Under the pieces are notes generated by a model. That model searched no databases, was not told the DNA's origin, and worked only from the letters and a program-made list of their open reading frames with translations. Below, piece after piece: positions 3,401 to 15,239 of a DNA stretch of 32,417 bases (its first letter is position 1; each line of letters starts with the position of its first letter). The stretch is from an uncultured Bacteroidota bacterium. GTDB lineage: Bacteria; Bacteroidota; Bacteroidia; Flavobacteriales; Flavobacteriaceae. The DNA lies in the NCBI GenBank assembly GCA_902577515.1, contig CACGZJ010000003.1:1-32417 (forward strand), given 5' to 3'. The translations under genes and the position numbers were made by a program.

Positions 3401-4474
3401 TCAGAGCTCAATTTTTTGTTTTTCTATTGATTTTATTGCTAAAAATGAGTAAGCTTTTACAACCAGGTTAAGGTATTTAAAACGGGTATCTTTGGTAAAT
3501 CCATTTTTATATCTAAAATATATTTGTTGAACAATTACAGCAATTTTAAATAGTCCAAATACAAAATAAAAGACAATATTTTCTATACTATTTCCAAATT
3601 TTTCATAGTATAAATGAAGAATCTTATTTCTTGTTGGGTTCTTGGTATCCATAGTTATATTAAGACCAACTCCTTTAATAAAATCTGGATCATTGTGTTG
3701 AATCCAATAAGCAAGAGATGTCCCTAGGTCCATAAAAGGATCACCTATAGTACACATTTCCCAATCGAGTATAGCTTTAATTGATAAATCATTCTCATCT
3801 AAGACTAAATTGTCATATTTAAAATCATTATGAATCAGTGAGACATATTTAGATTGAGATATATTAGACTTAAGCCAGTCCATGACTAATTCCATTTCCT
3901 TTAATTCCTCTGTTTTTGAATTCTTATATCTTTTACACCAGCCATAAACTTGTCTGGAGTTATAGCCTTCAGGATTTCCAAAATCACTTAATCCAATTTT
4001 ATTTATATCAAGCTTATGAAGTTCAACAAAGGAGTCTACAAACTGTTCTGCAAGAAAATTAAATTGAGATTTATCATTAATGATTTGACTATAATTGTTA
4101 CTCCTTAAAATAACACCTTTAACTCTCTCCATTAAATAAAAATCTGATCCAATAATATCCTTATCAGAACAATAATGAATTGGGTCAGGGGTTTTATGAT
4201 AGTGATCTTTAAGTGAGGAAAGAACTTTAAACTCTCTTGACATATCATGTCCAGATTTTATTTTTGCACCATGAGGTGGTTTTCTTAGAACGTATTCCTT
4301 TTCATTTGACTTAATTAGATAAGTAAGATTAGAGTACCCTGAAGGGAACTGAAGAATATCAAAACTTTCAATATCATGATCTATAATCTCTGAAAGGTAT
4401 TCGAATAACTTTGAATTATTGAGTTTTTCATCATTTCGAATTTCTGTGGGCCTATCAATTAATTTTTTAGACAT
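3401..4474 (-). CDS. APH-family phosphotransferase, ACAD10/11 kinase-domain type (LvaA-like)
   Basis: A 357-residue aminoglycoside-phosphotransferase-fold kinase. Kinase features are complete: phosphate-anchoring lysine in VLRKPP (K65), a helix-C glutamate in SREFKVL (E81), the catalytic loop HNDFKYDN (H215, D217, N222) and the metal-binding DWE (D237) followed by GDPFMDLGTSLAYW. The RKPP(H/P)G segment and LDWE..T.GDP pattern are typical of the subfamily fused to, or adjacent to, acyl-CoA dehydrogenases, including the N-terminal part of mammalian ACAD10/11 and LvaA of the P. putida levulinate pathway. Those kinases phosphorylate the 4-hydroxyl of 4-hydroxyacyl-CoA. It is the last gene of a leftward operon, 25 bases after the acyl-CoA dehydrogenase. 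Subfamily confidence is good; the substrate is inferred. Antibiotic resistance is unlikely. Confidence 0.85.
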   Translation of the reverse strand: MSKKLIDRPTEIRNDEKLNNSKLFEYLSEIIDHDIESFDILQFPSGYSNLTYLIKSNEKEYVLRKPPHGAKIKSGHDMSREFKVLSSLKDHYHKTPDPIHYCSDKDIIGSDFYLMERVKGVILRSNNYSQIINDKSQFNFLAEQFVDSFVELHKLDINKIGLSDFGNPEGYNSRQVYGWCKRYKNSKTEELKEMELVMDWLKSNISQSKYVSLIHNDFKYDNLVLDENDLSIKAILDWEMCTIGDPFMDLGTSLAYWIQHNDPDFIKGVGLNITMDTKNPTRNKILHLYYEKFGNSIENIVFYFVFGLFKIAVIVQQIYFRYKNGFTKDTRFKYLNLVVKAYSFLAIKSIEKQKIEL

Positions 4475-4499
4475 TATTTAATTGAACTTTAAGGTTTTT

Positions 4500-5687
4500 T
4501 TATTTTTGATATGACTTAAGGATAAGTCTAGCTAACCTAGTTTTATGAACTTCATCTGCTCCATCATAAATTCTGGCTGCTCTTTCATGCCTGTAAAATG
4601 ATGATAGTATAATATCATCTGTTACTCCTAGTGCACCATGGACTTGAATAGCATAATCAACAACTTTTTGAAGCACGTTAGCACAATAAAATTTGATAAT
4701 TGAAATCTCAGCTCTTGCATTGGAAGCTCCAAAAGAATCTATTTTCATTGCAGTTTCTTTTACCAATAATCGAGCTGCATTAATTTCAGCCCTAGACTCT
4801 GCAATCCAGTTTTGAATTGTTTGCTTATCTGAAAGGTAAACTCCATCTTCTAACTCTCTTGATATTGCTCTTTCGCACATTAGGGTAAATGCTCTTTCGC
4901 ACATACCGATCCATCTCATACAATGATGAATTCTTCCAGGTCCAAGTCTTTTTTGAGCAATAGCAAAACCATCTCCCTCAGAACCAAGTATATTTGATTC
5001 GGGTACAATAACATTTTTAAATTTAATTTCTGCATGACTCTCCCAACCTCCACCAGGATGTCCCATTATAGAAACATTTCTAACAAACTCAACTCCTTCA
5101 GTGTTAGTAGGTACTATAATTTGACTTGCTCTTTTATAGGGGTTTGCCTCATTAGGATCAGTCACTACCATTACTATTGCAAAGTCTGCTCCATCAAAGC
5201 TGGAAGTAAACCACTTATGTCCATTTATAATATAGTTTCCATTTTCTTTTTTTGCTACTGTGCCCATTCTTGTAGGATTTGACCCTGCATATCCAGGTTC
5301 AGTCATGGCAAAGCAACTTCTTATTTTACCCTCTAAAAGAGGTGTTAAGTAATCTTTTCTCTGTTGAGAAGTCCCTACTTCAATTAAAATTTCCATATTA
5401 CCAGCATCAGGCGCTTGACAATTAAATAAATAAAACCCATATGGACTTCCACCAAGGATTTCACTAATTTCACCATGTTGTTCAAGTGAAAGACCAATGC
5501 CTCCATAATCAGTTGAGATTTGAGGTAACCAAAGTCCCATTTTTTTAACTTTTTCTCTAAGTTCATTGAGTTTAGGAAGTTTTTCATCCCATTCACAGCT
5601 GTATATCCATGGTTCTAATGAATACAGTTCTTCTTTTACAAATTTTACTATTTTGTCTTTTAATTCTTTAAATTCTTTAAATTCCAT
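4500..5687 (-). CDS. Acyl-CoA dehydrogenase, ACAD10/11 (LvaC) type
   Basis: A 395-residue flavoprotein with all acyl-CoA dehydrogenase domains: an N-terminal helical domain, the middle beta domain with CFAMTEPGYAGSNP and NGHKWFTSSFDGAD, and the C-terminal helical domain with RLGPGRIHHCMRWIG and VHGALGVTDD. Where classical short- and medium-chain enzymes have the catalytic glutamate in YEG, this protein has IYDGADEVH (D375). An aspartate there with DEVH following is, from memory, characteristic of the ACAD10/11 branch. The gene next to it encodes the matching kinase, so the pair looks like a split ACAD10/11. Possible activity: converting 4-phosphoacyl-CoA to 2-enoyl-CoA, or ordinary alpha,beta-dehydrogenation. 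It lies 22 bases after the MaoC gene in the operon. Confidence 0.88.
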   Translation of the reverse strand: MEFKEFKELKDKIVKFVKEELYSLEPWIYSCEWDEKLPKLNELREKVKKMGLWLPQISTDYGGIGLSLEQHGEISEILGGSPYGFYLFNCQAPDAGNMEILIEVGTSQQRKDYLTPLLEGKIRSCFAMTEPGYAGSNPTRMGTVAKKENGNYIINGHKWFTSSFDGADFAIVMVVTDPNEANPYKRASQIIVPTNTEGVEFVRNVSIMGHPGGGWESHAEIKFKNVIVPESNILGSEGDGFAIAQKRLGPGRIHHCMRWIGMCERAFTLMCERAISRELEDGVYLSDKQTIQNWIAESRAEINAARLLVKETAMKIDSFGASNARAEISIIKFYCANVLQKVVDYAIQVHGALGVTDDIILSSFYRHERAARIYDGADEVHKTRLARLILKSYQK

Positions 5688-5709
5688 ATTATTAGTATCT
5701 GTAATTGCT

Positions 5710-6189
5710 TTAATTTGGCATAGAATATATTAACGAAATTGTTTCAGCAACACATACAGGTTTTATTTCTCCTTCTACCTCAAAAATTATTTTAAAAGTA
5801 TATTTTGCTCCACCCTCAACATCCTCTATATTTATTAGCGAAACCCTACCTCTAAACTTTGATTCTGCCGGTGTAGCATTAGGAAATCTCACTTTTTCTA
5901 AACCGTAATTTACAGCAAGAGCAATGTTATTTAACTTGAGTGTCTGGAACACAACCTGAGATGCAAAAGACAAAACATGGAATCCATGAGCTATAGTTTT
6001 CTTATATGGAGAATAGAGTTTTGCTTTCTCCTGATCAATATGTATCCACTGTTTATCTTGAGTTAATTCTGCAAATGAATTTACTTTGTCTTGAGTCATT
6101 TCAAACCAATCTGAAATACCTATTTCTTTATTAAGATATCTATTAAGATCTTCTAAATTTTCTATTTCCGTTGAATAAGATTTTTCCAT
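5710..6189 (-). CDS. MaoC-like (R)-specific enoyl-CoA hydratase
   Basis: A 159-residue single hot-dog-fold protein. The hydratase motif D-x4-H is present as TQDKQWIHID (D45, H50), followed by IAHGFHVLSFAS, a standard MaoC-dehydratase/NodN-like signature. Such enzymes add water to trans-2-enoyl-CoA to give (R)-3-hydroxyacyl-CoA. It sits between the SDR (9 bases upstream) and the acyl-CoA dehydrogenase (22 bases downstream), so it would hydrate the enoyl-CoA made by the dehydrogenase, with the SDR as a candidate for the next or a preceding redox step. The product name is firm at family level; chain-length preference cannot be read from sequence. Confidence 0.87.
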   Translation of the reverse strand: MEKSYSTEIENLEDLNRYLNKEIGISDWFEMTQDKVNSFAELTQDKQWIHIDQEKAKLYSPYKKTIAHGFHVLSFASQVVFQTLKLNNIALAVNYGLEKVRFPNATPAESKFRGRVSLINIEDVEGGAKYTFKIIFEVEGEIKPVCVAETISLIYSMPN

Positions 6190-6198
6190 ATTATATTT

Positions 6199-6975
6199 TT
6201 AATTTATCATATATCCGCCATCTATATTAAAGGTCTCTCCAGTAGTGTAGCTAGATGCATTTGATGCCAAGTAAAGTGCCATTCCTGATATTTCTTCAGG
6301 CTCTGCAGCTTTTCTAATTGGTAGATCTTTGAGCCATATTTCTAACATCTCGGCATTTTGCCATAATACTGAGCTAAGTTTTGTTTTAACTAATCCGGGA
6401 CAAATTGCATTTGATCTAATTCCATATTTACCCCACTCCTTTGCTTGGGACTTTGTTAACATACTAATTGCTGCCTTGCTAATTGAATATACTCCCAGGC
6501 CTTTATCTGGTTTATGTCCTTCAACTGATGAAATATTAATGATAGATCCTGAATTATTTTCTTTCATATATTTCATAACCATATTTGAAAGTTTAAATGC
6601 AGCTTTGACATTAATATCAATAATTTTATTAAATAATTTATCATCTGCATTTTCAAGTCTATCAAAAACTGGATTAATTCCTGCATTATTAACTAATATG
6701 TCGATTTTACCATATGTCTTTATCGTTGTTTCAACTAGATTTTTTAGTTGCTCCTCTTCACCAACATGACACTCAACAGCCTCTGCCTCAAAGCCATTTT
6801 TTTTAATATTTACTGCAATTTCGTCTACACTTTCTTTATTCCTGCTGCTTAAAACTACACTTGCTCCAAATTCAGCAAAAGCTTCAGCTATTGATGCACC
6901 GATACCTCTACTAGATCCAGTTATAATAGCAACTTTATCAGTCAAATCAAAAAGGTTCTTATACTTAATACTCAT
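6199..6975 (-). CDS. Short-chain dehydrogenase/reductase (SDR), FabG/LvaD-like
   Basis: A 258-residue classical SDR with a Rossmann fold. Visible motifs are the nucleotide-binding TGSSRGIG (T19-G26), NNAG (96-99), and the catalytic S150, Y163 and K167 in ISSVEG and YSISKAA. The C-terminal NIDGGYMIN is standard. It is the first gene of the leftward SDR-MaoC-ACAD-kinase operon, and its start faces the acyl-CoA synthetase across a 197-base divergent region. It may oxidise (R)-3-hydroxyacyl-CoA, or reduce a 4-oxoacyl-CoA to 4-hydroxy in the manner of LvaD. Sequence alone does not separate these. Activity as 3-oxoacyl-ACP reductase is possible but less likely in this context. Confidence 0.88.
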   Translation of the reverse strand: MSIKYKNLFDLTDKVAIITGSSRGIGASIAEAFAEFGASVVLSSRNKESVDEIAVNIKKNGFEAEAVECHVGEEEQLKNLVETTIKTYGKIDILVNNAGINPVFDRLENADDKLFNKIIDINVKAAFKLSNMVMKYMKENNSGSIINISSVEGHKPDKGLGVYSISKAAISMLTKSQAKEWGKYGIRSNAICPGLVKTKLSSVLWQNAEMLEIWLKDLPIRKAAEPEEISGMALYLASNASSYTTGETFNIDGGYMIN

Positions 6976-7097
6976 CTCTAATATTTTTATAACTCTGTAA
7001 TATACTAATTGATTTAATTTTCTAAACTAAATAGTATGTAAAAGAAAGAAAAAGATATTTTGCTAATATTTTAATTGAGGTAGTATTTTTTTAAAGA

Positions 7098-7111
7098 TGA
7101 AAATATTCTCA
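7098..7111. promoter_or_regulatory. Imperfect dyad in the divergent lipid-gene regulatory region
   Basis: TGAAAATATTCTCA is a near-palindrome (six of seven base pairs match) in the 197-base region between the divergent SDR operon and the acyl-CoA synthetase. Such dyads can bind TetR- or FadR-like regulators of fatty-acid degradation, but no regulator gene is nearby and AT-rich DNA produces such dyads by chance. No TAnnTTTG octamer is visible on either strand of this region. Confidence 0.2.
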
Positions 7112-7172
7112 TATATTTATTTAAACTGATTGTTAATTTAATTTAGATTAATAATTAAAAAACCAACTGATT

Positions 7173-8852
7173 ATGAGCGCAAATCAAGAACTATTTGAAT
7201 TCAAATTTTACGAATGGGAAGAAAAGTTTAAAGATAAACCTTACCTAAAACAACCTTTTGGTGATGAGTGGGAAGAATATACTTGGGGAGAGGTAGGTGA
7301 TATGGCCAGAAGACTTGCTACAGGACTAAGATCTTTAGGTCTCAGAGATGGTGCTCATATTGGAATTTACTCAAAAAACTGTAGAGAATGGATAATCTCT
7401 GACTTAGCAATTGTTATGGCAGGATACGTATCAGTTCCTTTTTTCCCTTCTTTAAATGGGAAGGAGCTATCATATATTATGGAGTATGGTGATGTTGACG
7501 CACTTTTTTTAGGAAAAATTGAAACATGGGATGAAATTAAAAATGATTTACCAGACGATATGCCAATGATAACATTCCCTCATTATAAGGGGTGTTCTGA
7601 GGTAACAAAAGGGTTTAAGTGGCATGATTTTATAAATAGCTATGAGCCAATTCAAAATCCAAATAAACCTAAATTATCAGATCTATGGACAATAATTTTT
7701 ACATCAGGTACTACTGGTAATGCTAAAGGAGTAATGCTTACGTACCAGGCAATTGATGGTATTAAGGTTGTATTAGATGATCCGAATAATCCTTTAGGAA
7801 TAAAACATGATGGAAATAACGATTTTATATCTTATTTACCATTGAATCATATTTTTGAGAGAGTTGTAATTGAGTGGTGTTCTTTTAGATATGGAGGTAT
7901 TATTTCATTCGTAGAATCTATTGATACTTTTGGTAAAAATTTAAAAGCTGTTCAGCCGCATGTTTTCGCAGCTGCTCCTAGGGTATGGACAAAACTACAA
8001 GTAGGAATTCTATCTAAATTTTCTCAAAAAACATTAGATATTTTACTTAGTATTCCATTATTATCAGGAGTATTTAAAAAGCTGATTCAAAAAGGACTTG
8101 GATTTACAAGAATTAGGATTGCTGTTTCAGGATCTGCTCCTATGCCAGTTGAGCTAATTGAGTGGTTCAGAAAAGTTGGTATTTTTATAACTAATGGTTA
8201 TGGGATGACGGAGAATTGTGCAATTTGTAGCTCTGTAGATGGTAAAGACTTTGAAAAATTACATACAGTTGGTAAACCACAAAAAGGAGTTGATCTAAAA
8301 ATTGATGAGGAAACTGGTGAAATTTTAATGAAGGGGCCTTTTGTAATGACTGGTTATTATAAAAATCAAGAACTAACTGAGCAGACTCTTAGAGGTGGTT
8401 GGCTTCATACTGGTGATAAAGGATTTTTAGATGAGGACAACTATCTTCATATTACTGGAAGAGTTGCAGATAGCTTCAAAACATCAAAAGGGGAATACAT
8501 TGAGCCATTAACTTTAGAGCAATATTTTGTAAATATTAATGAGATAGAAGAAGTCTGTGTTGTTGGACTAGGTATTGCTCAGCCAATTTGTCTTGTTCAA
8601 TTATCTGATATAGGTAAAAAGTGCTCAAATGAAGAAATTTCAGAGATGTTATTAAGTAGGTTAGATGAGGTGAACAGTGAACTTGTAAATTATAAAAAAA
8701 TCTCTACGTTAATAATAGTAAAAGATAACTGGACTCAAGAAAACGGTATAGTTGGTCCAACTCAAAAACTAAAAAGAGGAAAAATTCAGGATAAATATTC
8801 AAAAAACTATCTAAAATGGCATGAATCTGATGAAAAAATCATCTTTGAATAA
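7173..8852 (+). CDS. Long-chain fatty acid-CoA ligase (AMP-forming)
   Basis: A 559-residue ANL-superfamily enzyme that activates a fatty acid with ATP to acyl-AMP and then acyl-CoA. Motifs in order: the AMP-binding loop TSGTTGNAKG (177-186), LPLNHIFERVV, the NGYGMTENC adenylate-binding segment (about 339-347), HTGDKGFLDEDNYLHITGR (about 411-429) and a C-terminal region with the expected catalytic lysine near LKRGK. The length, shorter than plant or yeast LACS enzymes, and the HIFERV segment fit the bacterial FadD15-like/LACS type. It is transcribed away from the SDR-MaoC-ACAD-kinase operon, so it probably supplies that pathway's acyl-CoA; it could also activate exogenous fatty acids for general use. 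The cognate fatty acid is unknown. Confidence 0.92.
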   Translation: MSANQELFEFKFYEWEEKFKDKPYLKQPFGDEWEEYTWGEVGDMARRLATGLRSLGLRDGAHIGIYSKNCREWIISDLAIVMAGYVSVPFFPSLNGKELSYIMEYGDVDALFLGKIETWDEIKNDLPDDMPMITFPHYKGCSEVTKGFKWHDFINSYEPIQNPNKPKLSDLWTIIFTSGTTGNAKGVMLTYQAIDGIKVVLDDPNNPLGIKHDGNNDFISYLPLNHIFERVVIEWCSFRYGGIISFVESIDTFGKNLKAVQPHVFAAAPRVWTKLQVGILSKFSQKTLDILLSIPLLSGVFKKLIQKGLGFTRIRIAVSGSAPMPVELIEWFRKVGIFITNGYGMTENCAICSSVDGKDFEKLHTVGKPQKGVDLKIDEETGEILMKGPFVMTGYYKNQELTEQTLRGGWLHTGDKGFLDEDNYLHITGRVADSFKTSKGEYIEPLTLEQYFVNINEIEEVCVVGLGIAQPICLVQLSDIGKKCSNEEISEMLLSRLDEVNSELVNYKKISTLIIVKDNWTQENGIVGPTQKLKRGKIQDKYSKNYLKWHESDEKIIFE

Positions 8853-9068: not shown

Positions 9069-11993
9069 ATGAAAAATATTTTAAATAAGTATTATTTAGC
9101 CTTTATGGCTGTAATTCTGTTTGGTAGCGTTTATTCTCAAACACAAATATCTGGTTCAGTTGGGGACTCAGATACAATGGTTGGTATTCCTGGAGTAAAT
9201 GTTATTATAGATGGAACAAATATTGGGACCGTAACTGATTTTGATGGGAATTTCTCATTAAGTACAAGTCAAGAGCTCCCATTAACAATTGTTATTAGCT
9301 ATGTAGGATATAGCGCAGAACGTGTTAATGTAACTTCTGCTAATCAAGATATTAGCGTGATGTTATCTGCAGGGCAAAACCTTGAAGAAGTTGTTATTTC
9401 AGCTTCTAGGCGTGCTCAAAAAGTTACTGAAGCTCCTGCCTCAGTAAGTGTAATATCTACAAGACAAATTGAGAATTCTGCACAAGTAACAGAACCAACT
9501 AGAGTACTCGTTTCTGTTCCAGGTGTTCAAATTCAACAACAAACTGCTAACTCTCTTAACATAGAGATGAGAGCTGGATCTGGAGTTTTTGGTACATCTA
9601 CATATGTAATGAGAGATAATAGAGGGTTAATAACACCAGCTGCAGGAACTTTCTTTAGTTTCCAGCAAGGTCTATCAAATCTGGATCTAGCCTCAGTTGA
9701 AGTAGTAAGAGGTGCTGCAGGTGTTCTGTATGGACCAGGTGTTACTTCAGGTGTTGTTCACTTTAGAAGCAAAAGTCCTATTGACTTTACAGGTAATTCT
9801 GCATCTTTTTGGGGTGGAGAACTAAATACTTTTGGTTCAGAGTTTAGAATTGCCAGAGCAAACGATAGTAAAACTTTTGGATGGAAAATTAATGCTAGAT
9901 ATAACTCTGGTGATGATTTTACTTATGATGAGGATGAAGCAACATTGGCTGGTCGAGTTGGTGGAATTAACAGTATAATCAGACAACCTGTTATTAAAGA
10001 TATGATGGTTGACCCTATTGCTTCTCAAAATGGTAGTGTACTTTATGATTTTACCGGAGGAAACGCTTTAATAGATGATTACAGCAATATTGCATTTGAC
10101 ACAACTCTAGAATGGAGACCAAGTGATGATACTAACTATCAAGTTAGTGCCGGAATGAGTAATGGTGGTGGTCTATTTTTTCAAGATCTAGGTATTGCAT
10201 ATGCAGATGGAAGTACTTACTGGGGACAAGTTCAAGCAACAATGGGTAACTGGTATGCTCAAGCATTTATAGATCACAATGATGGTGGTGGAGATGATAA
10301 CCCAACGTTCTTATATGGTACAGGTTTACGTCAGGTTGCAAAGAGAACTAGTATTGAAGCACAGATTCAGTATAACTTTGATATGCCATGGTTTTTTGAC
10401 TCAGAATGGACAGTTGGATATGATTATAGAGACACAAATTCTGACTCAGAATACACTTTATGGGGAAGAAACGAAAACACTGATGACTATATAACTAACG
10501 GTTTTTATGGTCAAGGTACTCTTAAAATGTCAGAAAAAATGGATTTAGTAGTAGCTGGAAGATATGATCAAGCTAGTTTTATTAGCGCAGGAGAATTTGC
10601 TCCTAGAGCTGCTCTTGTTTATAAAGCTTCAGACAAAACAACATGGAGATTAGCATACAACAAAGCTCTGTCAGGACCTACTGCACTTGGAATGTACATT
10701 GACTTCCCAATTACTACTGCAGTACCTGGAGTTTTAGGTGCATGGCTAAGTGGTCAAAGTACTCCGCAGCAATTTGGTGACCCGTCAACTCAAGTAATTG
10801 ATTTAGCAGGAATCCCTATTGATATTCCTGTTTCAGCAGCAGGTGGTGGATTACCATTAGCTATTCCATATGGTTCTGTTGCATCTGCAGCTCTTGCAGG
10901 TTTGTATGCACAAGCTCCTTCATTACAACCTCTACTAACACCTTTCTTTGCAAGTTATGCAGGGCCGGCTGGTGGTTCAGGGATCTTAAGTCCTTATGAT
11001 TTCTTTGAACCTACTCAAACTACTGGTAATAGAGATACAGGAAGGGGAAGATTCAGCTCTGTAGAGAACATAGAGCTTGGTGTTACTAGTTTTATCGGTA
11101 AAAAGTTAAGAGTTAGTGCTGATATATATTCATACACTAACAGTGGTTTTACAAACTTTAATGCAATTGGTGATACATATGCATTAGTTGGATCAGATAT
11201 ACCAACAGATCTTGGAGCAGCTGTTGCTGCTGATGCTACGGCATATGTTACTAATGCAATTACTGCAGTTACAACTCAGACATACCAGGGTGTTGCTGCA
11301 CAGTTTGGGCTTCCATTTAGTGTTGTTGCCTCTGGTGCTCTTGCAGCACAAGGTGTACCTGCACTTCAAACTGCAATTGCAGGTGGTGTGGCACAAACTC
11401 TTGGAGGAATTAACGGTGCATTTCAAGCAGGAGGTCAAGGTTTCGTTAATCAATTAGGTCCATTATTTGGTGCAATAGGTGCTGTTGAATCCAATAGAGT
11501 CCCTCAAGGAGATGGAATTACTCACATTACAACTGGATATACTAATTATGCTGATGCTAAAAGATCTCACTTTGGAGCTGACTTCAGCTTGGATTATACT
11601 GCTACTAGTGATTTAAGATTATGGGCAAATGCTTCCTGGTTAAGTCAAAATGAGTGGATTCCTGGAGAAGATAATGATGACGACTTACTTAGTACATCAT
11701 ATCTGAATGTGCCAATGTGGAAATACAGAATGGGTGTTGATTATACTCCACTTACTGGATGGAATTTCTCAGTATCATTCCAACATGATGATAAATTTAG
11801 ATCAGTTCAAGGTTTCTGGAATGGTATGGTTGAAACTAAAAACCTAATTGATGCAAGTTTAGGTTATAGGTTTAGTCCTAATCTTAGATTTGATCTATCT
11901 GCAACTAACCTTACAGATAAACCATATCAAACTTATCCAAACCTACCTACAATTAGAAGAAGAGTATTAGGAAAACTAACTTTCAACTTCTAA
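9069..11993 (+). CDS. TonB-dependent outer-membrane receptor with hydrophobic Ala/Gly-rich segments
   Basis: A 974-residue outer-membrane active transporter. Residues 1-23 form a signal peptide ending in SVYSQ. A CarboxypepD_reg-like beta-sandwich follows (about 25-100, with GTVTDFDGNFSL), then a TonB-box-like LEEVVISAS (105-113), the plug (about 118-240, with VEVVRGAAGVLYGPGVTSGVV) and the beta-barrel, ending in LGKLTFNF. Two long segments of the barrel part are unusually hydrophobic and Ala/Gly/Pro-rich: about residues 540-647 and 714-814. Most barrel loops are polar, so these may be surface loops that contact a hydrophobic ligand. C-ending codons appear more frequent than in neighbouring genes, as in highly expressed genes. 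The adjacent acyl-CoA ligase and beta-oxidation genes suggest a lipid or fatty-acid substrate; this is inference. No SusD partner is present. Confidence 0.9.
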   Translation: MKNILNKYYLAFMAVILFGSVYSQTQISGSVGDSDTMVGIPGVNVIIDGTNIGTVTDFDGNFSLSTSQELPLTIVISYVGYSAERVNVTSANQDISVMLSAGQNLEEVVISASRRAQKVTEAPASVSVISTRQIENSAQVTEPTRVLVSVPGVQIQQQTANSLNIEMRAGSGVFGTSTYVMRDNRGLITPAAGTFFSFQQGLSNLDLASVEVVRGAAGVLYGPGVTSGVVHFRSKSPIDFTGNSASFWGGELNTFGSEFRIARANDSKTFGWKINARYNSGDDFTYDEDEATLAGRVGGINSIIRQPVIKDMMVDPIASQNGSVLYDFTGGNALIDDYSNIAFDTTLEWRPSDDTNYQVSAGMSNGGGLFFQDLGIAYADGSTYWGQVQATMGNWYAQAFIDHNDGGGDDNPTFLYGTGLRQVAKRTSIEAQIQYNFDMPWFFDSEWTVGYDYRDTNSDSEYTLWGRNENTDDYITNGFYGQGTLKMSEKMDLVVAGRYDQASFISAGEFAPRAALVYKASDKTTWRLAYNKALSGPTALGMYIDFPITTAVPGVLGAWLSGQSTPQQFGDPSTQVIDLAGIPIDIPVSAAGGGLPLAIPYGSVASAALAGLYAQAPSLQPLLTPFFASYAGPAGGSGILSPYDFFEPTQTTGNRDTGRGRFSSVENIELGVTSFIGKKLRVSADIYSYTNSGFTNFNAIGDTYALVGSDIPTDLGAAVAADATAYVTNAITAVTTQTYQGVAAQFGLPFSVVASGALAAQGVPALQTAIAGGVAQTLGGINGAFQAGGQGFVNQLGPLFGAIGAVESNRVPQGDGITHITTGYTNYADAKRSHFGADFSLDYTATSDLRLWANASWLSQNEWIPGEDNDDDLLSTSYLNVPMWKYRMGVDYTPLTGWNFSVSFQHDDKFRSVQGFWNGMVETKNLIDASLGYRFSPNLRFDLSATNLTDKPYQTYPNLPTIRRRVLGKLTFNF

Positions 11994-12071: not shown

Positions 12072-12087
12072 ACTCTAAGCATTGGCA

Positions 12088-13530
12088 ATGAAAAAAGTAG
12101 GTATTGACTCTATATCATATTATGTCCCATCTCTATATGTAGATATAGAGGAGTTGGCTGAGAAAAGAAATATATCAGCAGAAAAGCTCAAAAATGGATT
12201 AGGGCTAAAAAAGATGGCAACTCCTGATTATGATGAGGATGCTGCATCTATTGCTGCAAATTCTCTTTTTAGACTGATTACTGAAAATAATATTAATCCC
12301 AAGGAAATAGGAAGAGTGTATTTAGGAACAGAGAGTGGTGTTGACTCCTCAAAACCAACGTCATCTTATGTTGTTGAGATACTTGAAGAAGTATTTAAGG
12401 ATAAATATGGGGAAAGATGTTTTATGAACTGTGATATTGTTGATTTAACATTTGCTTGTGCAGGTGCTGTTGATGCGCTACAAAACTGTTGCGATTGGGT
12501 TCGAAATGGTAATAATAGAAAAGCAGTTGTGATTGCGTCAGATATTGCTAAATACGAACTAAACTCAACCGGAGAATATACTCAAGGTGCTGGTTCTGTA
12601 TCCATGCTTATCTGCAAAGAACCATCCATTATTTCATTTAATGGCTCGTGGGGAGTATCTTCAAAAGGTATTGGTGATTTTTTTAAGCCAAGAAGACAGT
12701 ATAACAAGGCTAATATATTAATTGAGGCAGCGAAAATTCTCAACAAAGAAGTTTCCAAACAAGAAGCGGAAGAATTACTAGAAAAATCAAAATCAAAATT
12801 CTGGTCTGATACAAATGATATTATTGAGGTACATAAAGAAGAGCCAATTTTTGAAGGTCAGTTTTCTAATGAGAGTTATAAAGAAAGAGTCTATGAGGCG
12901 ATTGAAGATTTCAATAATCAGAATGAAAGTAATATTTTAAAAGATTGGGAGAATATAATTTTTCATCTTCCATATGCATACCACGGGAGAAGAATGATAA
13001 CAGATAAATGGATAGAGTGGATGGGAAAAAACGGAGATTCTGAGCTTATTTACTCAGAAGTTGGTAATCCAAAGTCTAACTTAGATAAAGATTGGATAAA
13101 AAAAGTTTCAAAGTCAAGTATGTATAAAAATTTTGTTGACCACAAGATTGCTCCTGGCGAAAAGGCATCTTCTGAGATTGGAAATATGTATACTGCCTCA
13201 ATTTTTATGTCATTAATTAGTTCGTTAGTTGAAGCTTTATCAAATGGTAATGAATTTACTAATAAGAAAATTGGATTTATTAGTTATGGTAGTGGTTCCA
13301 AAGCAAAGGTTTTTGAGGGTACTGTCCAAACTAATTGGAAAGATAAGATTGAAAGTATTAAACTATTTCAAAGTTTAGACTTGAGAAAAAAGATTAGTAT
13401 AGATATTTATGAGAAACTTCACAAAAGAAAGATCTCATCTAATATTAACAACAACCAAGGGATTATCAAGTTAAAGAATATTGATAAAGGTCAATTTACT
13501 GAAGGTCTAAGGAGCTATTTTAAATATTGA
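12088..13530 (+). CDS. mvaS: Hydroxymethylglutaryl-CoA synthase
   Basis: A 480-residue thiolase-fold enzyme that condenses acetyl-CoA with acetoacetyl-CoA to HMG-CoA, the first committed step of the mevalonate pathway to isoprenoids, which Flavobacteriia use in place of MEP. Catalytic residues are visible: E82 in LGTESGVDSSKP, the nucleophile C124 in DLTFACAGAVDAL, and H293 in FHLPYAYHG. GSGSKAKVFEG near the C-terminus is also typical. ATG 12088 is preferred to an in-frame TTG six bases earlier, because MKKVGIDSISYYVP matches the family N-terminus. At 480 residues it exceeds the roughly 390-residue Gram-positive enzyme; the extra length is mainly a Glu/Lys-rich insertion at about 205-285 and a C-terminal extension. 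etfB follows after 7 bases. Confidence 0.93.
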   Translation: MKKVGIDSISYYVPSLYVDIEELAEKRNISAEKLKNGLGLKKMATPDYDEDAASIAANSLFRLITENNINPKEIGRVYLGTESGVDSSKPTSSYVVEILEEVFKDKYGERCFMNCDIVDLTFACAGAVDALQNCCDWVRNGNNRKAVVIASDIAKYELNSTGEYTQGAGSVSMLICKEPSIISFNGSWGVSSKGIGDFFKPRRQYNKANILIEAAKILNKEVSKQEAEELLEKSKSKFWSDTNDIIEVHKEEPIFEGQFSNESYKERVYEAIEDFNNQNESNILKDWENIIFHLPYAYHGRRMITDKWIEWMGKNGDSELIYSEVGNPKSNLDKDWIKKVSKSSMYKNFVDHKIAPGEKASSEIGNMYTASIFMSLISSLVEALSNGNEFTNKKIGFISYGSGSKAKVFEGTVQTNWKDKIESIKLFQSLDLRKKISIDIYEKLHKRKISSNINNNQGIIKLKNIDKGQFTEGLRSYFKY

Positions 13531-13537
13531 TTGTGAT

Positions 13538-14284
13538 ATGAATATATTGGTTTGTATTAGTAATGTACCTGACACTACCTCAAAGATTAATTTTACTGAC
13601 GGTGACTCTAAATTTGATAAAAATGGAGTTCAATTTATAATCAATCCAAATGATGAATTCGGTTTAACAAAAGCTGTATGGATGAAAGAATCAAACAATG
13701 CATCAGTTACTGTTCTCACTGTAGGTGATTCCTCTGCTGAAGCTATTTTGAGAAAATGTTTGGCAATTGGAGCTGATAAAGCAATAAGAATAGACTGTAA
13801 AGCAGAAGATGCTTATTCTGTAGCAAAAGAAATCGTCTCTCATTGTGAAACTGTTAAATATGATTTAATAATATGTGGTCGTGAATCTATAGATTATAAT
13901 GGTGGTCTTATACCAGGTTTATTAGCTGGTTATTTAAATTACAATTTTATTACTAATTGTGTGAGCCTTGAAATTGAGTCAGGAAAAGCAAAATGTGCTA
14001 GAGAAATATCTGGTGGAACAGAGTTTAGTGAATGTGATCTTCCTTTAGTTGTTGGTGCTCAAAAAGGATTAGTTGAAGAGAGTGATTTAATCATTCCTAA
14101 CATGAGAGGTATAATGATGGCGCGTCAAAAACAATTAGATGTATATAAAGCTCAAAATATAAATAGTAGAGCTGTTGATAAGAGGTTCTTTAAACCTGAA
14201 GAAAAAGGTGAAGTTAAATTGGTAAGTTCAGATGAACTTGATAAGTTGATTGATTTACTGGAAAATGAAGCGAAAGTAATTTAG
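13538..14284 (+). CDS. etfB: Electron transfer flavoprotein beta subunit
   Basis: A 248-residue EtfB, which with EtfA forms the soluble FAD/AMP heterodimer that takes electrons from acyl-CoA dehydrogenases and passes them to ETF-quinone oxidoreductase. It has the N-terminal MNILVCISNVPDTTSKINF, the conserved NPNDEFGLTKAVW region, CGRESIDYNGG and the C-terminal recognition-loop region with NMRGIMMARQKQ. Length and motifs are normal. It is co-transcribed with mvaS (7-base gap) and etfA (4-base gap). ETF-quinone oxidoreductase is not in the window. The linkage fits the nearby acyl-CoA dehydrogenase, although that gene is on the other strand. Confidence 0.95.
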   Translation: MNILVCISNVPDTTSKINFTDGDSKFDKNGVQFIINPNDEFGLTKAVWMKESNNASVTVLTVGDSSAEAILRKCLAIGADKAIRIDCKAEDAYSVAKEIVSHCETVKYDLIICGRESIDYNGGLIPGLLAGYLNYNFITNCVSLEIESGKAKCAREISGGTEFSECDLPLVVGAQKGLVEESDLIIPNMRGIMMARQKQLDVYKAQNINSRAVDKRFFKPEEKGEVKLVSSDELDKLIDLLENEAKVI

Positions 14285-14288
14285 AAAT

Positions 14289-15239
14289 ATGTCGGTATTA
14301 GTATACTCAGAATCTGAAAACGGTAAATTAAAAAAATCATCATTTGAGACTGCATCATATGGAAAAGCCTTATCTGAAAAGTTAGAATCCAAGCTAATAT
14401 GTACAAGCTTTAATTGTTCCGATTCAGAATTATTAAATAAATATGGAGCAGATAAAATAGTTAATGTTGAAAGTAGTAACCTTAAGGAGTTTACCGCCAA
14501 GACATACTCTCATGCATTATCGCAAGTTATTGAAAAAGAAGATGTTTCAGTAGTCATACTTTCTTCATCTGCAGATGCAAAGTATCTTGGAGCTTATCTG
14601 GCTGGAATTACAGATTCAACATATATTTCAAATGTTGTTGAACTACCTGAAAGTATAAATCCATTTATAGTTAGGAGAAGTTGTTTTACAAATAAAGCAT
14701 TCTCTTCTACAGAAATTGGTGGTGATCTAAAGATTATTAGCATTTCGTCAAATTCATTTGGACTAAAAGAGAATAGTGGAGATGGAATTTTAGAAACATT
14801 GAATATTAAAGAGATAAATACAACTTTTAAAGTCTCCAATGTAGAAAAACAAAGTGGTAAAGTTACTATAGCGGATGCTGATATAGTAGTTTCTGCAGGA
14901 AGAGGTCTAAAAGGACCTGAAAATTGGAATATGATTGAAGACCTAGCAGATGTTCTTGGTGCAGCAACAGCATGTTCAAAACCCGTGTCTGATATGGGAT
15001 GGAGACCACACAGTGAACACGTCGGTCAAACTGGTAAACCTGTATCTTCTAATTTATATATTGCAATTGGTATTTCAGGAGCAATTCAACATCTTGCTGG
15101 AATAAATTCCTCTAAAATTAAAGTTGTCATAAATAATGATCCTGAAGCACCATTCTTTAAGGCAGCTGATTATGGTATAGTTGGAGATGCATTTGAGATT
15201 GTTCCAGAATTAATAAGCAAGCTTAAGTCAAGACAATAA
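14289..15239 (+). CDS. etfA: Electron transfer flavoprotein alpha subunit
   Basis: A 316-residue EtfA. The C-terminal FAD-binding domain is clear: VVSAGRGLKGPENW (about 201-214), LGAATACSKPVSDMGW, the HSEHVGQTGKPVSSNLYIAIGISGAIQHLAG signature split across about 239-270, and NNDPEAPFFKAADYGIVGDAFEIVP. The N-terminal domain (MSVLVYSESENGKLKKSSFE) is the usual Bacteroidota form. It is the last gene of the mvaS-etfB-etfA unit; beyond it lie 139 very AT-rich bases and then a convergent gene. Confidence 0.96.
   Translation: MSVLVYSESENGKLKKSSFETASYGKALSEKLESKLICTSFNCSDSELLNKYGADKIVNVESSNLKEFTAKTYSHALSQVIEKEDVSVVILSSSADAKYLGAYLAGITDSTYISNVVELPESINPFIVRRSCFTNKAFSSTEIGGDLKIISISSNSFGLKENSGDGILETLNIKEINTTFKVSNVEKQSGKVTIADADIVVSAGRGLKGPENWNMIEDLADVLGAATACSKPVSDMGWRPHSEHVGQTGKPVSSNLYIAIGISGAIQHLAGINSSKIKVVINNDPEAPFFKAADYGIVGDAFEIVPELISKLKSRQ

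What the first reader, a model, noticed from the sequence alone, without database searches (positions are those of the whole stretch)
3401..8852. Possible 4-oxo/4-hydroxy fatty-acid catabolic module: split ACAD10/11 with SDR, hydratase and ligase
Seen: adjacent APH-type kinase (H215/D217/N222, D237) and acyl-CoA dehydrogenase with IYDGADEVH in place of YEG, co-operonic with a MaoC hydratase and an SDR, divergent from an acyl-CoA ligase. Known: mammalian ACAD10/11 fuse these kinase and dehydrogenase types and process 4-hydroxyacyl-CoAs through a 4-phospho intermediate; P. putida LvaA, LvaC, LvaD and LvaE (kinase, ACAD, SDR, CoA ligase) do the same for levulinate. Inference: this set could activate a 4-oxo or 4-hydroxy acid, reduce it, phosphorylate the 4-hydroxyl, eliminate phosphate to the 2-enoyl-CoA and hydrate it. 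Such acids arise by lipid peroxidation, plausible in sunlit seawater. The small LvaB partner is not present.
Basis: partly seen in the sequence, partly recalled or inferred. Interest (0 to 1): 0.68.

Follow-up and report, generated by a model that had tools for sequence, protein, structure and literature searches.

The report
Split ACAD10/11-type hydroxyacyl-CoA kinase–dehydrogenase module
A small Bacteroidota genome carries, as two neighbouring genes, bacterial counterparts of the two halves of the mammalian enzymes ACAD10/11, which phosphorylate a 4-hydroxy fatty acid and then remove the phosphate so that it can be burned; the dehydrogenase half belongs to a widespread sister branch for which I found no enzyme that has been tested.

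Summary
Kinase (3401-4474) and acyl-CoA dehydrogenase (4500-5687) are an unfused LvaA/LvaC-ACAD10/11 kind of pair. The ACAD keeps the residues shown to matter in ACAD11 (Arg626, His634, Arg637, HCMR, catalytic Asp753); the kinase keeps the catalytic and CoA-site residues. The same 17 of 149 family genomes and the same 27 of 395 phylum genomes hold both genes. New: the ACAD lies in a sister clade ('A') of the ACAD11 clade, spread over at least eight phyla. In relatives, kinases of the window's lineage are paired with ACAD11-like enzymes instead, which argues that both clades use the same 4-phosphoacyl-CoA. One relative has a 4-hydroxybutyryl-CoA dehydratase between kinase and ACAD. The SDR accompanies the pair in 15 of 16 family relatives; a TonB receptor flanks the operon in four of the five closest, the ligase in two. 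Those five also carry PimC/PimD-like ACADs and a crotonase, not found in this 78%-complete genome, so a bulky or branched substrate is possible. The 4-oxo reduction, the MaoC step, uptake and the substrate remain inference. Missing LvaB is no objection: the P. citronellolis cluster lacks it too.

The parts
3401..4474 (-). 4-hydroxyacyl-CoA kinase (APH fold, LvaA / ACAD10-11 kinase-domain type), 357 aa
   Evidence: PF01636 141.9 bits; best PDB hits 9o56 (1.3e-77) and mouse ACAD11 (1.2e-44), best drug kinase 4.3e-4; HxD, N, D and the two CoA-site Arg invariant in the 64 kinases aligned
4500..5687 (-). 4-phosphoacyl-CoA-eliminating acyl-CoA dehydrogenase of clade A (sister of the ACAD11 clade), 395 aa
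   Evidence: 274-276 bits to ACAD11 against 129 to the best conventional ACAD; RLGPGRIHHCMR and catalytic Asp as in ACAD11; tree
5710..6189 (-). MaoC-type enoyl-CoA hydratase, 159 aa
   Evidence: PF01575 66 bits; present in 5 of 5 closest relatives' operons, 44-53% identical
6199..6975 (-). SDR oxidoreductase, 258 aa: LvaD-like 4-oxoacyl-CoA reductase or (R)-3-hydroxyacyl-CoA dehydrogenase
   Evidence: PF13561 224 bits; an SDR at least 49% identical lies at the pair in 15 of 16 family relatives
7173..8852 (+). acyl-CoA ligase (AMP-forming), 559 aa, divergent from the operon
   Evidence: PF00501 235 bits; orthologues at the same locus in G081 (69%) and G095 (59%), on another contig in G136 (55%), weak partial hits in G052, none in G137 at E <= 1e-30; one of two AMP-binding ligases found in the genome, the other being acetate-CoA ligase
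9069..11993 (+). TonB-dependent receptor, 974 aa; probable outer-membrane importer of the substrate (inferred from position only)
   Evidence: PF13715, PF07715, PF00593; a TBDR 42-45% identical flanks the operon in 4 of 5 closest relatives, the fifth operon running into a contig end

Best explanation
The locus lets the cell burn acids that carry an oxygen at carbon 4. The kinase phosphorylates the 4-hydroxyl of a 4-hydroxyacyl-CoA with ATP; the dehydrogenase uses its Asp base and FAD, plus an Arg/His/Arg phosphate pocket, to expel the phosphate and leave a 2-enoyl-CoA without net oxidation; hydratase, dehydrogenase and thiolase then finish beta-oxidation. Supported here by sequence and evolution: identity and pairing of kinase and ACAD. 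Inferred: import by the TonB receptor, activation by the ligase, possible 4-oxo reduction by the SDR, hydration by MaoC, and the natural substrate. None of it is shown biochemically for these proteins.
For: ACAD: the residues corresponding to R626, R631, H634, C635, M636, R637, D753 of ACAD11 and its conserved proline are all present; PMC12440821 section 7 reports that changing R626, H634 or R637 ablates this activity in ACAD11. Kinase: catalytic and CoA-site residues all present, 157 bits to ACAD11. The same 17/149 and the same 27/395 genomes hold both genes; in six of the 27 the genes are more than 3 kb apart or on different contigs (the latter may be assembly breaks). Partner exchange: flavobacterial operons whose ACAD is 54.5-58.5% identical to ACAD11 have kinases that nest with the window's kinase lineage (19 rows, 97*); holding 26 kinases of clade-B ACADs together is rejected, p-AU 0.00058. 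A 4-hydroxybutyryl-CoA dehydratase-family protein (762 bits to 6vjr) lies between kinase and ACAD in G081 and occurs in 2 of 149 family genomes, both holders of the pair (chance 0.012). A 3HCDH/ECH protein and a thiolase are present for the later steps.
Against: The ACAD is only 41% identical to ACAD11 and lies in clade A, for which I found no tested enzyme, so its substrate may differ. P. putida LvaA and LvaC themselves were not fetched. Ligase and TBDR are not at the locus in every relative. Context in relatives (PimC/PimD-like ACADs) fits bulky or branched substrates as well as linear 4-hydroxy acids. The AbfD evidence is two genomes. A kinase of 100 bits or more was seen within 6 kb in only 23 of 31 clade-A loci and 23 of 53 other loci outside the family; many of those contigs are short.
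Confidence: 0.8

Rival explanations
1. Same kinase and elimination chemistry, but the true substrate is a bulky, branched or cyclic acid (terpenoid, sterol side chain or similar), not a linear oxidised fatty acid; the window organism keeps a shortened version. (Compatible with the best explanation; it differs in the substrate.)
For: All 5 closest relatives carry PimD-like and PimC-like ACADs beside the kinase (47-74% to those of G052 in the other four); the PimC-like one is nearest in the PDB to the Tcur3483 ACAD and 4x28, which I recall as steroid alpha2beta2 ACADs. Three actinobacterial loci (L094, L107, L109) have kinase + ACAD + MaoC + PimC + PimD. Biotin-dependent carboxylase genes lie next to the ligase in G081 and G136.
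Against: The window lacks that ACAD pair at this place, and the other three ACADs found in the genome score at most 84 bits to PimD and 80 to PimC, where the relatives' proteins score 338-623; the operon stands without them. AbfD in G081 points to short chains. The genome is 78% complete.
Confidence: 0.35
2. The SDR and MaoC are a (R)-3-hydroxyacyl-CoA branch of beta-oxidation (MaoC hydrates, SDR oxidises), not a 4-oxo reductase step; the substrate enters already as a 4-hydroxy acid.
For: MaoC and SDR are neighbours in the window and in 5 of 5 closest relatives; the SDR passes only a generic NCBIfam subfamily cut-off (PRK07231, 258.7 of 215 bits), while the best-scoring model, PRK07035, is missed (298.8 of 373 bits).
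Against: The SDR stays beside the ACAD in type-B operons and in clade-A loci of other phyla where no MaoC is adjacent, as an SDR (LvaD or its homologue) does in P. putida and P. citronellolis (PMC6692424, passages).
Confidence: 0.4
3. Ordinary: a conventional acyl-CoA dehydrogenase next to an unrelated small-molecule kinase (drug, choline or thiamine kinase).
For: Pfam and NCBIfam give only generic names, with weak hits to choline kinase, ThiK and APH(3').
Against: Those NCBIfam hits are far below cut-off (best 40.9 of 299 bits); phosphate-pocket residues, Asp base, tree placement (100/99*) and identical genome sets contradict it.
Confidence: 0.04

Closest known systems
Mammalian ACAD11 and ACAD10 (PMC12440821, PMC11342911)
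   Same: Kinase plus ACAD with the same catalytic and phosphate-pocket residues; ACAD11 is the best-scoring solved structure for the ACAD and the second-best protein for the kinase.
   Different: Two separate proteins; 41% (ACAD) and 31.5% (kinase) identical to mouse ACAD11 over the aligned parts; no HAD domain among the eight proteins scanned; ACAD in a sister clade. ACAD10 itself was not compared.
[quoted passage not shown] lvaABCDEFG) and the P. citronellolis LA18T cluster (PMC9399607 and PMC6692424, passages only)
   Same: Unfused kinase, ACAD and SDR, with an acyl-CoA ligase near by; like the P. citronellolis cluster, no LvaB.
   Different: MaoC in the operon, divergent ligase, TonB receptor. 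PMC11342911 gives LvaC 56% identity to ACAD11 while the window ACAD has 41%, so it is probably not a strict LvaC orthologue. LvaA/LvaC sequences were not compared directly.
4hr3, Mycobacterium abscessus putative ACAD (249.5 bits); nearest mycobacterial entry, whether it is 'FadE36-type' was not checked
   Same: Same superclade with the Asp base; HAMR in place of HCMR.
   Different: Falls in clade B with ACAD11; 39% identical.
9o56, 'Aminoglycoside phosphotransferase' (PDB)
   Same: Nearest solved kinase, 265 bits, 40% identical.
   Different: Depositor's name only; no paper holding '9o56' in the library; its partner ACAD is unknown to me.
4-hydroxybutyryl-CoA dehydratase (AbfD; 6vjr, 1u8v)
   Same: Same net reaction on 4-hydroxyacyl-CoA (recalled); a family member lies inside the operon of G081.
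   Different: Unrelated protein family; not found in the window's genome at E <= 1e-40.

Membership tests
ACAD10/11-LvaC type acyl-CoA dehydrogenase | Asp instead of Glu as catalytic base (ACAD11 D753) | tested here: met
   IYDGADEVH aligned to LADGPDEVH
ACAD10/11-LvaC type acyl-CoA dehydrogenase | Phosphate-pocket residues R626, H634, R637 and HCMR motif | tested here: met
   RLGPGRIHHCMR identical to mouse ACAD11; the roles are from PMC12440821 section 7
ACAD10/11-LvaC type acyl-CoA dehydrogenase | Groups apart from conventional ACADs | tested here: met
   82 rows against 6 conventional ACADs, 100/99*; outgroup branches are long and the program warns of it
ACAD10/11-LvaC type acyl-CoA dehydrogenase | Lies inside the clade that holds ACAD11 (clade B) | tested here: not met
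   Window in clade A (37 rows, 100/99*), ACAD11 in clade B (38 rows, 99/84*)
ACAD10/11-LvaC type acyl-CoA dehydrogenase | Turns 4-phosphoacyl-CoA into 2-enoyl-CoA | not testable with these tools
   needs an enzyme assay
LvaA / ACAD10-11 kinase | Catalytic Asp220, Asn225, metal Asp and the CoA-site Arg residues | tested here: met
   All present, invariant in the 64 rows aligned. The paper's 'R86' is taken to be the Arg before the alpha-C Glu, which by my count is R84.
LvaA / ACAD10-11 kinase | Pairing with a phosphate-eliminating ACAD | tested here: met
   17 of 149 and 27 of 395, identical genome sets
LvaA / ACAD10-11 kinase | Phosphorylates the 4-hydroxyl of 4-hydroxyacyl-CoA | not testable with these tools
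   needs an enzyme assay
lva-type levulinate operon | Small LvaB partner | tested here: not met
   No ORF of 90 aa or more between the operon genes. PF19802 (which I recall, unverified, as LvaB's family) gives 0 matches in the 78%-complete genome. The P. citronellolis cluster lacks it too.
lva-type levulinate operon | LvaD-type 4-oxoacyl-CoA reductase | tested here: inconclusive
   SDR conserved beside the pair but only a generic family match
lva-type levulinate operon | LvaE-type ligase in the operon | tested here: inconclusive
   Ligase divergent; same locus in 2 of 5 closest relatives
Fused ACAD10/11 protein | Kinase and ACAD in one polypeptide | tested here: not met
   Two ORFs with a 25-bp gap

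The most novel reading that the evidence does not exclude
Clade A is an old, phylum-spanning, biochemically untested branch of phosphate-eliminating acyl-CoA dehydrogenases that swaps with ACAD11-type enzymes on the same kinase lineage. In the window's genome and its small-genome relatives it is the core of an uptake-to-oxidation locus (TonB receptor, ligase, kinase, ACAD, SDR, MaoC) for oxidised lipid or terpenoid acids, with a substrate class (branched or cyclic 4-hydroxyacyl-CoA) that, as far as I saw, neither LvaC nor ACAD10/11 has been shown to use, and one lineage has added a 4-hydroxybutyryl-CoA dehydratase for the same net step.
Probability: 0.3. Interest if true: 0.68.

Novelty: new variant of a known kind. 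Interest (0 to 1): 0.5.

Why it matters
4-Hydroxy acids are largely incompatible with ordinary beta-oxidation (PMC12440821, abstract); the enzymes that handle them in mammals were named only in 2024-2025. Finding a kinase-ACAD pair kept in an assembly of about 1.2 Mb (78% complete), with a separate ACAD clade that exchanges with the ACAD11 clade, gives a natural cross-complementation test of the unusual FAD-dependent phosphate elimination, and a gene marker for this catabolism in metagenomes.

Tried and rejected
Conventional ACAD plus unrelated kinase: rejected on residues, tree and shared genome sets. Promoter and terminator scan: nothing above shuffles. Curated families (NCBIfam) for substrate: no cut-off passed among the matches shown for kinase, ACAD, MaoC and ligase; for the SDR, among the 25 of 238 matches shown, one generic subfamily cut-off was passed (PRK07231, 258.7 of 215 bits), not informative. 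TonB receptor: no close solved structure (best 6.6e-7) and no NCBIfam cut-off passed, so its substrate stays open. Literature searches for 9o56, for the pair with steroid gene clusters, and for 4-hydroxybutyryl-CoA dehydratase in Bacteroidetes gave no paper that I could connect (listings only). LvaA/LvaC of P. putida were not obtained: the one genome-contig scan kept its 80 best loci of 587, and none was P. putida. Structure prediction was not run, since sequence matches to solved structures were already strong. The DUF6285 test for LvaB rests on an unverified memory.

The first ACAD tree had '-' strand loci translated on the wrong strand and is discarded; one search replaces it. A set of lines headed 'PimC Lxxx' comes from a wrong column index in my script and is ignored; the dictionaries there are right. 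The first ORF-based context table of the far loci failed on GC-rich loci and was replaced by tblastn.
Full report
What is there. The window is contig C3:1-32417 of a 1.16-Mb, 30-contig, 78%-complete assembly. The relative G081 of the same family has a contig C3 of 86,568 bases, as has the record CACEKG010000003.1 titled 'uncultured Bacteroidetes bacterium isolate AG-390-P11', which holds the same ACAD, kinase and AbfD genes, so the host is very probably a member of Bacteroidota; its family has no name in these tools. Kinase, ACAD, MaoC and SDR are on one strand with gaps of 25, 22 and 9 bp; the ligase is divergent after 197 bp, and a TonB-dependent receptor follows the ligase after 216 bp. The GC content of the module is that of the window (0.314 against 0.309).

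The pair is of the ACAD10/11-LvaA/LvaC kind. Against all PDB sequences the ACAD scores 274-276 bits with ACAD11, 249.5 with M. abscessus 4hr3 and 129 with the next, conventional ACAD. The kinase scores 265 bits with 9o56, 153-157 with ACAD11, 141.5 with 3dxp and 23.4 with the best drug kinase. PMC12440821 (outline with abstract, passages and section 7 seen) reports that R626, H634, R637 and D753 of ACAD11 form the pocket that holds and expels the 4-phosphate and that non-conservative changes of R626, H634 and R637 were the most disruptive. All of them are in the window protein, in the identical string RLGPGRIHHCMR and the Asp of IYDGADEVH, together with a proline (NCQAP) that I take to be the one noted in PMC11342911. 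In 105 aligned ACADs, R626, H634 and D753 are invariant and R637 is present in 103; this count is biased, because 80 of the 105 rows come from a scan whose patterns contained GPGRIHHC or [YA]DG[AP]DEVH. The 16 family relatives, which were brought in by the kinase search, are free of that bias and keep all of these residues. The kinase residues that correspond to D220, N225, R176, the Arg before the alpha-C Glu and the metal Asp are invariant in the 64 kinases aligned.

The pair is kept together. At E <= 1e-60 (ACAD) and <= 1e-40 (kinase), 17 of 149 family genomes hold the ACAD and the same 17 hold the kinase, with gaps of 22-1551 bp. In the phylum draw 27 of 395 genomes hold each, again the same 27, spread over 18 of 171 genera. 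By my count on the listed places 21 of the 27 have the genes within about 3 kb; G425, G332, G417 and G529 have them on different contigs, G451 about 100 kb apart and G321 about 8 kb apart. The two draws share some genomes, and genomes are not independent events, so the combinatorial chance values are only a yardstick.

Two ACAD clades. A tree of 88 of the 137 ACAD rows that I had (42 far loci, 5 phylum loci and 2 family loci left out to keep it tractable) separates 82 rows of this superclade from six conventional ACADs (100/99*). The window lies in clade A: 37 rows, 100/99*, with records labelled Bacteroidota, Chloroflexota, Planctomycetota, Myxococcota, Thermodesulfobacteriota, Acidobacteriota, Spirochaetota and Pseudomonadota (mostly metagenome bins), plus a Gemmatirosa plasmid. 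ACAD11, 4hr3 and the ACADs of 9 of the 11 'type B' family relatives (the other two were left out of the tree) lie in clade B (38 rows, 99/84*), the sister of A (99/95*). Seven further rows lie outside both. Type-B ACADs are 54.5-58.5% identical to mouse ACAD11, type-A ones 40.5-41.9%. PMC11342911 gives LvaC 56% to ACAD11, so I expect LvaC in clade B, but I could not fetch it. Outgroup branches are long and the program warns of this.

Partner exchange, the main new argument. In the kinase tree (64 rows, quick method, midpoint root) the 11 kinases of type-B family operons and the type-A family kinases fall together (19 rows, 97*), inside the group that holds the clade-A kinases and away from the group with ACAD11 and most kinases of Pseudomonadota and Actinomycetota (20 rows, 99*). 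Bacillus L110 shows a similar mixed pairing: clade-B ACAD, kinase in the clade-A group. Holding 26 kinases that partner clade-B ACADs together is rejected (178 log units worse, p-AU 0.00058; 55 rows after dropping nine, simpler model). Of those 26, 20 have their ACAD placed by the tree and 6 were assigned by similarity alone. The group was defined from the ACADs, but after I had seen the quick kinase tree. The simplest reading is that the ACAD partner was exchanged while the kinase lineage stayed, so clade A and clade B accept the product of the same kinase. Because clade B holds ACAD11, which has been tested, this supports 4-phosphoacyl-CoA as the clade-A substrate class.

A second hint. In G081 the gene between kinase and ACAD encodes a protein with 762 bits to 6vjr and 558 bits to 1u8v, the 4-hydroxybutyryl-CoA dehydratase / vinylacetyl-CoA isomerase family. 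Among 149 family genomes it occurs in two, G081 and G018, and both hold the pair (chance 0.012). It performs the same net step, 4-hydroxyacyl-CoA to enoyl-CoA, by another mechanism (recalled).

The wider locus. All five type-A relatives (G095, G052, G137, G136, G081) share PimD-like ACAD, PimC-like ACAD, kinase, ACAD, crotonase, MaoC and SDR in this order, with AbfD inserted in G081. A second SDR ('SDR2') follows in four of five and a TBDR lies at that end in four of five; the G136 operon runs into a contig end. The ligase orthologue is just beyond the TBDR in G081 (69%) and G095 (59%), on another contig in G136 (55%), while G052 gives only weak partial hits and G137 none at E <= 1e-30. atpD lies on the other side in four of five (not G136), as in the window, and genes beyond the TBDR end are shared with the window in the three relatives where I looked (G081, G095, G052). 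The window organism therefore has a shortened version without PimC, PimD and crotonase at this place. Its genome shows four ACADs (the three outside the window score at most 84 bits to PimD or PimC of G052), one ECH-domain protein (3HCDH/ECH, next to a thiolase) and two AMP-forming ligases, of which one is acetate-CoA ligase.

Other loci. In 84 loci from genome contigs and plasmids (L042 left out as identical to G081; many contigs are short; clade A taken here as at least 51% identity to the window ACAD), a kinase of at least 100 bits lies within 6 kb in 23 of 31 clade-A loci and 23 of 53 others; the window-type SDR in 12 of 31 and 6 of 53; a histidine-phosphatase-like gene in 7 of 31 and 1 of 53; a ligase match in 1 of 31 and 13 of 53; PimC plus PimD in 0 of 31 and 5 of 53, three of these also with kinase and MaoC. 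So outside the family the ligase and PimC/PimD are not regular companions of clade A. In the family, an SDR at least 49% identical to the window's lies at the pair in 15 of 16 relatives (G099 is the exception). In P. citronellolis the lva cluster has kinase, histidine phosphatase, ACAD and SDR without LvaB (PMC6692424, passages), the same kit as Azoarcus L039.

How it most likely works. Import (TBDR, inferred), CoA activation (ligase, inferred), possibly 4-oxo reduction (SDR, inferred, rival role (R)-3-hydroxyacyl-CoA dehydrogenase), phosphorylation of the 4-hydroxyl (kinase, supported), elimination of phosphate with transient use of FAD (ACAD, supported; mechanism as discussed in PMC11342911, section 10 part 1 seen, and PMC12440821), hydration (MaoC or the ECH-domain protein, inferred) and thiolysis. 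The substrate is open: linear 4-hydroxy or 4-oxo acids are the conservative choice, a branched or cyclic acid the alternative suggested by PimC/PimD in relatives.

Verdict. Observation confirmed; interpretation right in its core, unproven in its outer steps, and to be corrected in the placement of the ACAD and in the extent of the locus. It is a new variant of a known kind. In the searches (listings) I saw no paper that describes clade A or this locus; the library lacks most subscription journals, and Rand et al. 2017 is known to me only through the papers cited.

Noticed in passing
L025:9976-11487 (G081), and G018:C1:57905-59407: 4-Hydroxybutyryl-CoA dehydratase (AbfD type) in 2 of 149 family genomes, in one of them inside the kinase-ACAD operon.
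   Followed up: partly
L021-L025, e.g. L022:6564-8887: PimC/PimD-like ACAD pair beside the kinase in all five closest relatives; the PimC-like one is nearest to the PDB entries of Tcur3483 and 4x28. Similar pairs stand beside kinase and ACAD in actinobacterial loci L094, L107 and L109.
   Followed up: partly
L026:7170-7883, L039:9426-10097 and further clade-A loci: Histidine-phosphatase-like genes recur beside the kinase-ACAD pair (7 of 31 clade-A loci); also reported from P. citronellolis. Possibly removal of dead-end phospho-intermediates. The L026 protein has only weak family matches.
   Followed up: partly
window 12082-15239: HMG-CoA synthase-like gene (277 of 360 bits, below cut-off) directly followed by two ORFs that look like the ETF subunits (ETF domain found in the first; the second not scanned), downstream of the TonB receptor on the same strand.
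   Followed up: no
L139:7786-12179 and L142:2668-7063: Carboxyltransferase, biotin carboxylase and crotonase genes (acyl-CoA carboxylase-like set) next to the ligase in G081 and G136.
   Followed up: partly
L030:8312-8695; ORFs of similar length and place in L031, L034, L035, L036: A 127-133 aa ORF directly downstream of the kinase in type-B operons; the one in L030 has no Pfam or NCBIfam match. A candidate for an LvaB-like partner.
   Followed up: no
L021:13357-15753 (G095): 798-aa protein made of two ACADs in tandem, in the operon.
   Followed up: no
L002 (G000:C9:6892-7548): Second APH domain of the genome, in an open frame of 1012 aa.
   Followed up: no
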